Shown: positions 16,437-18,131 of the stretch, in pieces
How positions within the stretch are numbered: the first letter of the stretch is position 1
Layout of the letters: every line of letters begins with the position of its first letter
Source: Listeria monocytogenes
GTDB taxonomy: Bacteria; Bacillota; Bacilli; Lactobacillales; Listeriaceae
Direction: 5' to 3'
NCBI RefSeq assembly: GCF_041765605.1
Contig: NZ_CP168900.1
Location: 1,628,001 to 1,692,000, forward strand
Length of the DNA stretch: 64,000 nt
Made by a program: the position numbers and the translations under genes
Notes under the pieces: model-generated
Databases searched by the model: none
Seen by the model: only the letters and a program-made list of their open reading frames with translations
What the model was told of the DNA's origin: nothing

Positions 16437-18131
16437 TTGAACTATCAAGTTGATGAAAATGGAAAAATTATGAACCAGCAGCCTGAACAAATCACCGCCC
16501 TGTATTGCCGTCTATCTCGTGATGACGAACTTCAAGGCGATAGCAACAGCATTGTGAATCAGAAATCAATTCTCTCAAAGTACGCAGAAGAACACCGCTT
16601 ACTCAACACTCGCTTCTTTATTGATGATGGGGTATCAGGAACTACCTTTGACCGTCCCGGACTGAATGAAATGCTTGCTCTAATTGATGAGGAAAAAGTA
16701 TCTACTGTAATAGTCAAGGACATGAGCAGGCTCGGCAGGGATTATTTGAAGGTTGGTCTGCTTACCGAAATCCAACTGCCGGAAAAAGGTGTTCGGTTTA
16801 TCGCTATCAATGATGGCGTTGACAGTAATCAAGGCGTCAGTGAGTTCATCGCATTCCGCAATGTGATTAATGAATGGTACGCCAAAGATACCAGTAAGAA
16901 AATCAAAGCTGTGTTTACAGCAAAAGGACAATCCGGCAAACCGCTTAGCACCTTCCCGCCTTATGGATATATCAAAGACCCAGAGGACAAAAATCGCTGG
17001 ATTGTAGATGAAGCTGCCGCCGAGGTTGTTCGTGAGATATTCCGGCTTTGCATGGAGGGTAACGGCCCCACTAAAATTGCTCGGATATTATCTGAGCGCA
17101 GGGTGCTGATACCGTCTGCTTATGCAAAGTCAAACGGCAGAAGCGCACCTGCTGATGTTCCCGCTGATCGATGTAAATGGTGTGACAGTACCGTGGCTCA
17201 TATCCTTGAACGGAAAGAGTATCTGGGGCATACGGTGAATTTTAAAACCTACAAGGAATCCTTTCGGAATAAGAAATAGCGGAAGAACCCGAAAGAAAAC
17301 CAAATGGTATTTGAAAACACCCATCAGCCTATCATTGAACAGGATGTATGGGATACCGTCCAGCAGCTGCGTTAGAACAAGCGTAGGCCATCTAAGACTG
17401 GTAAAACCAATATGTTCAGCGGCATTCCCCATTGTGCTGATTGCGGGAGCAAGCTGTATTACTGCACAACCAGATACTTTGAGACAAGGCATGACCATTT
17501 CCGGTGTTCTGCTTCGCAAAAAGCGGTTGACCCGTGTACATCCCATTTCATCCGTGCTGTTGTGCTGGAAGAAATGGTACTGGCGCACATGCGCTATGTG
17601 ATTGGCTTTGTACAGCGGTATGAGGACAGCTTTCGGGTGTCCATCGAAGCAGAACGTTCCACGGAAATCCAAAAAGAGTTAAGTGCCAAGCGGAAACAAA
17701 TAGCACAGTCTCAGAAGCGTGTAGATGATCTGGATGTATTATTCCGTAAAGTCTATGAGGACAACGCTAGTGGGAAGCTGACGGATGAACGCTTCATGCA
17801 GTTGTCAAGAGGATATGATCTGGAACAGAAAACACTGCGGCAAATGATTACAATGCTAGAAAAAGAGATTGATCAGCAGGAACAAAAGACCACACAGGTA
17901 GAAGATTTCATTGCCAAGTGCAAGCGGTACTCTAGCCTAGAAACATTGACCCCTGCCATCCTCAATGACCTTGTGATCAAGGTATTTGTGGAAGCACCGG
18001 ACAAAAGCACTGGCAAGCGCAGACAGGGGATTCATATCAGTTACAATCTTGTGGGGATACTGCCACCACTGGAACGCTTCCAGCCTGTTGTAGTTGAGCG
18101 ACCAAACAAAGAAAAAGCAGAAACGGCGTAG
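16437..18131 (+). pseudogene. TndX/TnpX-type large serine recombinase, interrupted by two in-frame TAG codons
   Basis: One continuous reading frame of 564 codons that is open apart from TAG at 17277-17279 and TAG at 17373-17375. The order is an N-terminal resolvase catalytic domain (YCRLSRDDELQGDSNS with the nucleophile serine), the recombinase domain (FPPYGYIKDPEDKNRWIVDE), a zinc ribbon beginning FSGIPHCADCGSKLYYC, and a C-terminal coiled coil with VIKVFVEAP. Full length matches the TndX family. The stops fall between the recombinase domain and the zinc ribbon. The second replaces what is usually glutamine (LR-x-NKRRP). Start is TTG at 16437 with AGGAGG 7 nt upstream. Without suppression the product is 280 aa and lacks the DNA-binding C-terminus. 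Confidence 0.9.

What the first reader, a model, noticed from the sequence alone, without database searches (positions are those of the whole stretch)
16437..18131. Large serine recombinase with two in-frame amber codons and an otherwise open frame
The 564-codon frame shows no frameshift and no other stop, only TAG at 17277 and TAG at 17373, both in the linker before the zinc ribbon. Motifs on both sides stay well conserved. The second TAG replaces a position that is usually Gln (CAG to TAG is one change); the first may be similar. Two separate stops of the same kind in 100 bp, with nothing else damaged, could mean recent inactivation. It could also mean an origin in a host or phage-rich setting that reads TAG (amber-suppressor or recoded lineages), or translational readthrough that limits recombinase level.
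Basis: partly seen in the sequence, partly recalled or inferred. Interest (0 to 1): 0.75.

Follow-up and report, generated by a model that had tools for sequence, protein, structure and literature searches.

The report
Decayed transposon recombinase with two stops
A small foreign DNA element in a bacterial chromosome has probably lost its cutting-and-joining enzyme to two ordinary stop mutations gained at different times, and the same element sits in a second species, most likely carried there by exchange of the surrounding chromosome.

Summary
The two in-frame TAG codons (17277, 17373) are real and the frame is otherwise open. They look like ordinary decay of a TnpX-like large serine recombinase. 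The gene sits in a 5.19-kb element (12998-18188) inserted in the terminator region of a tpx-like gene, with imperfect inverted repeats and a TA core. One other species of the genus (G012) holds the element at the same site with 6 differences. It shares the stop at 17373 and has a sense codon at 17277, so the stops arose at different times and 17373 is hardly an assembly error. Element and flanks lie in a ~10-kb tract 98.6-99.9% alike in the two genomes, against 83-87% in three segments measured outside. Comparison with 12 other species makes G012 the recipient. No CUA tRNA was seen among 58 found, the gene's own terminator is TAG, and read through, no relative had a stop at either codon (0 of 125, 0 of 122). 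Scattered internal stops of all three types occur elsewhere in the family. Recoding, suppression and programmed readthrough are not supported. Two details of the finding are wrong: the stops lie in, or at the end of, the DNA-binding domain, and the second position is rarely Gln (1 of 75).

The parts
12998..18188 (.). Whole inserted element, 5191 bp (equally 12996-18186; the TA at either end is shared)
   Evidence: Joined flanks closely match the empty site of G019; only TA is shared between left and right junction
12994..13022 (+). Left terminal inverted repeat (with 4 flanking bases)
   Evidence: 29 nt, 83% complementary to 18162-18190
18162..18190 (-). Right terminal inverted repeat; 18111-18193 resembles the end of, and sequence behind, recombinase genes of relatives
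16437..18131 (+). Large serine recombinase gene, TnpX-like, interrupted (TTG at 16437; a further ATG at 16470)
   Evidence: PF00239 and PF07508 before the stops, PF13408 and PF14287 after them; best solved relative TnpX 2mhc, E 1.3e-36
17277..17279 (+). First in-frame TAG; absent from G012, the only other genome found with the element
17373..17375 (+). Second in-frame TAG, shared with G012
15499..15945 (-). MerR-family regulator (cargo)
   Evidence: PF13411 5.6e-17; best NCBIfam match NmlR, below its cut-off
14741..15502 (-). Short-chain dehydrogenase (cargo)
   Evidence: PF00106 3.3e-43
14037..14798 (-). NADPH-dependent FMN reductase / flavodoxin-like protein (cargo)
   Evidence: PF03358 1.9e-22
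13489..13917 (-). Sigma-70 region 4-like protein (likeness to Tn916-type regulators is recalled)
   Evidence: PF08281 7.7e-4, below Pfam's cut-off
13269..13511 (-). HTH_16 protein (likeness to Tn916-type regulators is recalled)
   Evidence: PF12645 1.8e-18
18207..18704 (-). tpx-like thiol peroxidase (chromosomal); the element lies just behind it, in what reads as its terminator
   Evidence: PF08534 1.9e-33; uninterrupted site in 12 of 16 printed relatives, the other 4 printed on another side of the gene; hairpin read by eye, not folded
11808..22200 (.). Approximate tract nearly identical to G012, element included; ends read from 1-kb bins
   Evidence: 98.6-99.9% inside; 82.8-86.8% in three segments outside, 94.8% in the left edge 10500-11800
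12405..18575 (.). Core of the tract: 6 differences, all inside the element; 0 in 980 flanking bases

Best explanation
This is a small integrated element of the serine-recombinase kind. It entered the tpx terminator region by insertion at a TA dinucleotide (inferred from the junctions). A nonsense change at 17373, present in both genomes that hold it (shown), cut its recombinase short. The element with its flanks passed from this lineage or a close sister to another species, G012, by homologous exchange, perhaps in more than one event (inferred from divergence profiles). A second nonsense codon at 17277 is seen in this genome only (shown); it most simply arose later. The product ends after about 280 residues, inside the DNA-binding domain and without zinc ribbon and coiled coil, and is expected to be unable to move the element (inferred).
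For: G012 has the element at the same site with 6 differences, one at 17277 and none at 17373; its open frame is 32 codons longer and so ends at the second stop (328 against 296). 1-kb bins show 0-16 differences within 12-22 kb and 47-209 outside, apart from 37 in the edge bin at 11001. G000 is 91.6-98.5% like G017-G019 in all seven segments; G012 is 81.9-87.1% like them outside and 92.2-97.9% inside. The core 12405-18575 has 0 differences in 980 flanking bases. None of 58 tRNAs has CUA. Of 209 distinct matches checked copies have one stop in an otherwise continuous frame. Only 1 match to the recombinase in this genome at E 0.001. An integrase without its zinc domain binds DNA poorly (PMC3783163, passages).
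Against: The rest of the frame is undamaged, so a trace of readthrough product cannot be excluded by sequence. The tract is not uniform: the element differs by 6 in 5191 bases, the right flank 18576-20000 by 13 in 1425 and 20-22 kb by 28 in 2000, so one single recent exchange does not explain it; nested exchanges or a separate arrival of the element at the same preferred site remain possible. One genome per species was at hand, so intact copies in other strains are unknown. A donor strain without the 17277 stop is also possible. The tRNA search scored 150 of 232 candidates, and the genus usually has more than 58 tRNAs (recalled).
Confidence: 0.88

Rival explanations
1. Readthrough of both TAG codons makes a little full-length recombinase and so limits excision.
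For: The frame beyond the stops is intact; read through, it is 61.6% identical to an intact relative over 2-532 of 542. One of three lengths tested after the first stop folds somewhat better than shuffles (80 nt, z -2.15).
Against: No stop at either codon in relatives read through their stops (0 of 125, 0 of 122). G012 has only one of the two. The other folds are unremarkable: z -0.56 and -1.0 after the first stop, 0.29 to 0.55 after the second (single-base shuffles). Two readthrough events in series would be needed.
Confidence: 0.03
2. The host, or a former host, reads TAG as an amino acid through a suppressor tRNA.
For: Both stops are TAG.
Against: None of the 58 tRNAs found has CUA. A pattern for CUA tRNAs gave 5 places against 12 for its reversed control, and ARAGORN finds no tRNA at them. 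8 of 53 long open frames of the window end in TAG, both pieces of the recombinase counted. The recombinase and two of three cargo genes end in TAG.
Confidence: 0.01
3. Sequencing or assembly error at one or both codons.
For: 17277 is seen in one assembly only.
Against: 17373 is the same in two assemblies of different species. The genome is one contig, 99.99% complete.
Confidence: 0.03
4. The shortened protein (catalytic domain plus part of the DNA-binding domain) has been kept as a regulator or partial recombinase.
For: ICESe2 encodes a 284-residue TndX-like protein with only the N-terminal half (PMC3672683, passages). The first 280 residues match G012 at 100%.
Against: The ICESe2 authors failed to find a circular form by PCR (PMC3672683, passages). 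Stops in relatives do not cluster here: 2 of 12 in the 260-335 interval, 1.7 expected; two more found later lie at 402 and 510.
Confidence: 0.03

Closest known systems
TnpX of Tn4451 / TndX of Tn5397 (large serine recombinases)
   Same: Same kind of domain order in the DNA (Resolvase, Recombinase, zinc ribbon, DUF4368; that TnpX and TndX share DUF4368 is recalled); catalytic part matches TnpX 2mhc at E 1.3e-36; imperfect inverted repeats; 2-bp shared core.
   Different: Core TA here, against GA for Tn5397 (PMC3672683, PMC4430133, passages). Gene broken. No relaxase found in the element.
ICESe2 of Streptococcus equi
   Same: TndX-like recombinase of 284 residues; no circular form detected by PCR (PMC3672683, passages).
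   Different: A large conjugative element with a siderophore cluster; the cause of its short protein was not examined here.
Mobilisable element of G014 (same genus)
   Same: Uninterrupted recombinase, 53% identical over the N-terminal part; a 37-nt stretch upstream of its mobC matches 16026-16062 at 92%.
   Different: Has a relaxase and mobC.

Membership tests
TnpX/TndX-type large serine recombinase (the gene) | Resolvase, Recombinase, zinc ribbon and DUF4368 in one frame | tested here: met
   All four Pfam families above cut-off in the pieces; not in one product because of the stops
TnpX/TndX-type large serine recombinase (the gene) | Closest solved relative is of this type | tested here: met
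   2mhc TnpX E 1.3e-36, next TP901-1 integrase 7.1e-9
TnpX/TndX-type large serine recombinase (the gene) | GA dinucleotide at ends and target | tested here: not met
   The shared dinucleotide at the junctions is TA
Active transposon | Complete recombinase reading frame | tested here: not met
   Two internal TAG
Active transposon | Circular intermediate | not testable with these tools
   Needs reads or PCR
Integrative mobilisable element (Tn4451 kind) | Relaxase gene | tested here: not met
   No match to MobA or MobC of G014 in 12501-18700 at E 1; no relaxase among the Pfam hits of the element's listed genes. Other relaxase families were not searched for apart
Recoded or suppressed TAG | tRNA with CUA anticodon | tested here: not met
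   0 of 58 found; 150 of 232 candidates were scored
Programmed readthrough | Stop conserved at the same codon in relatives | tested here: not met
   0 of 125 and 0 of 122 places; G012, a copy of the same element, shares the second stop only

The most novel reading that the evidence does not exclude
A transposon whose recombinase is dead still spreads between species by homologous exchange of its flanks, perhaps because its MerR / dehydrogenase / FMN-reductase cargo beside a thiol peroxidase gene is useful to the host.
Probability: 0.2. Interest if true: 0.35.

Novelty: new member of a known kind. Interest (0 to 1): 0.18.

Why it matters
It removes a candidate for stop-codon recoding. It gives an example of transposon decay in steps, and of an element predicted to be dead that is shared by two species within exchanged chromosomal DNA. 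The survey also shows that a single in-frame stop in an otherwise open recombinase is not rare in this family.

Tried and rejected
Clustering of breaks near the end of the DNA-binding domain: after seeing L228, L229, L043, L056 and L231 I suspected it (note). Of 12 checked stops in 11 relatives, 2 lie in the 260-335 interval, 1.7 expected. Left out of that count: frameshifts (L056, whose stop at 318 lies in the interval; L230; L231 near 284; L249), the lost C-terminal part of L043 (the same gene as L233) at about 280, and copies with several stops (L244, L251). Counting L056, L231 and L043 would favour clustering; L025 (510) and L065 (402), found later, would not. G1454, which looked truncated, is cut by its contig end. 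Not supported, but the sample is small and was not gathered evenly.

My first count of relatives with a stop at the two codons (0 of 75) was circular, since those 75 had been chosen for a long open frame. I replaced it by a reading through all stops.

Rfam hit mir-4436 at 16227-16302 is below its gathering score; taken as a chance match of a long hairpin.

The stretch 16026-16062 as an origin of transfer: shared with the G014 mobilisable element upstream of mobC. None of 9 viral contigs with the looser pattern has a match to that relaxase or MobC; no match of 16005-16085 in plasmids. Left open.

Element elsewhere: in plasmids only recombinase stretches, at most 11% of the element, in 8 records; in 395 genomes only G000 and G012 hold it nearly whole, 2 candidates scored per genome.

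Cargo beside related recombinases, 80 loci at E 1e-8: HTH_16 0, FMN reductase 0, dehydrogenase 1, MerR 1, sigma 6; at E 1e-5 the relaxase 0 and MobC 2. Not fixed companions. A PADLOC match of the MerR protein (mad1, 1.2e-13) covers only its DNA-binding part.

Papers: listings of searches show no description of this element; only passages were read, of PMC3556495, PMC5704250, PMC13297112, PMC3672683, PMC4430133 and PMC3783163. The main text of PMC3556495 names neither lmo1582 nor lmo1583; its supplements were not seen.

Full report
What is there. The frame 16437-18131 has 564 codons and a TAG terminator; TAG at 17277 and 17373 are its only internal stops. The pieces match Resolvase and Recombinase before the stops, zinc ribbon and DUF4368 after them. 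The catalytic part is closest to TnpX among solved structures. Among named genomes the best relatives reach 67% identity; the 80 kept, of 439 found, are mostly Clostridia, with some Bacilli and single loci from other groups. Records very near the window's own genome may be left out of that search.

The element. The recombinase is the last gene of a 5191-bp element at 12998-18188. It has 29-nt imperfect inverted repeats, three cargo genes (MerR regulator, short-chain dehydrogenase, FMN reductase) and two small regulator-like genes. In 12 of 16 relatives printed, the region behind the tpx-like gene is uninterrupted and reads by eye as a short terminator hairpin; the other 4 were printed on another side of the gene. 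Joined, the flanks of the element closely match the empty site of G019. The only bases shared between the junctions are TA, as expected for a serine recombinase with a 2-bp overlap; Tn5397 uses GA (PMC3672683, PMC4430133, passages). The right end resembles the end of, and sequence behind, recombinase genes of other bacteria (14 rows, 13 places). The genus name Listeria is recalled from the gene order and comes from no call.

A second copy orders the stops. Of 395 genomes of the order searched, 25 of them in the genus, two hold the element nearly whole: G000 (this one) and G012. G012 has it at the same site with 6 differences: 13364, 14423, 16206, 16289, 17277 and 17427. The stop at 17373 is shared. 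At 17277 G012 has a sense codon, and its open frame is 32 codons longer.

How it came to be in two species. In 1-kb bins the genomes differ by 47-209 positions outside about 11.8-22.2 kb, 37 in the edge bin at 11001, and by 0-16 inside. Against G017-G019, G000 is 91.6-98.5% identical in all seven segments; G012 is 81.9-87.1% outside and 92.2-97.9% inside (the left edge, 94.0-94.9%, lies in a gene conserved in most of the 12 species). So G012 received the tract from the lineage of G000 or a close sister. Within the tract the core 12405-18575 has 6 differences, all in the element and none in 980 flanking bases, while 18576-20000 has 13 in 1425. This uneven profile suggests nested exchanges. A separate insertion of the element at the same site is not excluded, but the clean flanks speak for exchange.

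Why not recoding or readthrough. ARAGORN around the 58 tRNA matches gave 58 tRNAs, none with CUA; 150 of 232 first-look candidates were scored, and by recall the genus has more. A separate pattern for CUA tRNAs gave 5 places against 12 for its reversed control, none a tRNA. TAG is the natural end of the recombinase, of two of three cargo genes and of 61 of 75 relatives with a frame over 450 codons (3 of the 75 run off their contig). Read through their stops, relatives show no stop at the first codon in 125 of 125 places covered, nor at the second in 122 of 122 (one gene, L043 and L233, is counted twice).

How unusual is it. Of the 80 loci, four show an internal stop: L077 (35), L056 (318, with a frameshift), L065 (402) and L025 (510). 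L043 has lost its C-terminal part and L027 is cut by its contig end. In some searches, 209 distinct matches, with only the best 3 or 4 candidates scored per genome, 15 rows list stops. I fetched 12 of these. Six have one stop in a continuous frame (L240, L241, L242, L243, L245, L246). Two have several (L244, L251). One has a frameshift (L249). Two have a stop only near the natural end (L247, L250), L250 lacking its N-terminal part. L248 starts late and shows one near the end, though the table lists three. G1191, G1236 and G1256 were not fetched. In some searches (26 rows, and 37 besides this genome) L228, L229 and L235 have one stop, L232 two, L230 and L231 frameshifts, L233 a lost end; four more rows with a listed stop (L234, L236, L237, L238) show none within the gene. 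With L077 the 12 checked stops are 6 TAG, 5 TAA and 1 TGA. The window's case is of this ordinary kind.

Verdict. The cause is most likely decay in steps. The bonus is an element predicted to be dead that is shared by two species within exchanged chromosomal DNA.

Noticed in passing
11808-22200: About 10 kb nearly identical to G012 although three segments around it differ by 13-17%: exchange between species, this lineage or a sister as source; the inner 6.2 kb is cleaner than the rest.
   Followed up: yes
16026-16062: 37-nt stretch with a small hairpin, 92% identical to the region upstream of mobC in a mobilisable element of G014 (L121:3641-3677): perhaps a remnant origin of transfer.
   Followed up: partly
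16227-16302: Long hairpin (27-nt arms, 89% complementary) upstream of the recombinase; function unknown. G012 has one more base there (16289).
   Followed up: no
L232 (G557:C2:98800-102000): A relative with two in-frame TAG codons in an otherwise open recombinase, at other positions: an independent case of the same look.
   Followed up: partly
L121 (G014:C2:424000-438000): Element of the same genus with relaxase, mobC, sigma-like gene and an uninterrupted recombinase of this type, preceded by a 141-codon recombinase-like frame.
   Followed up: partly
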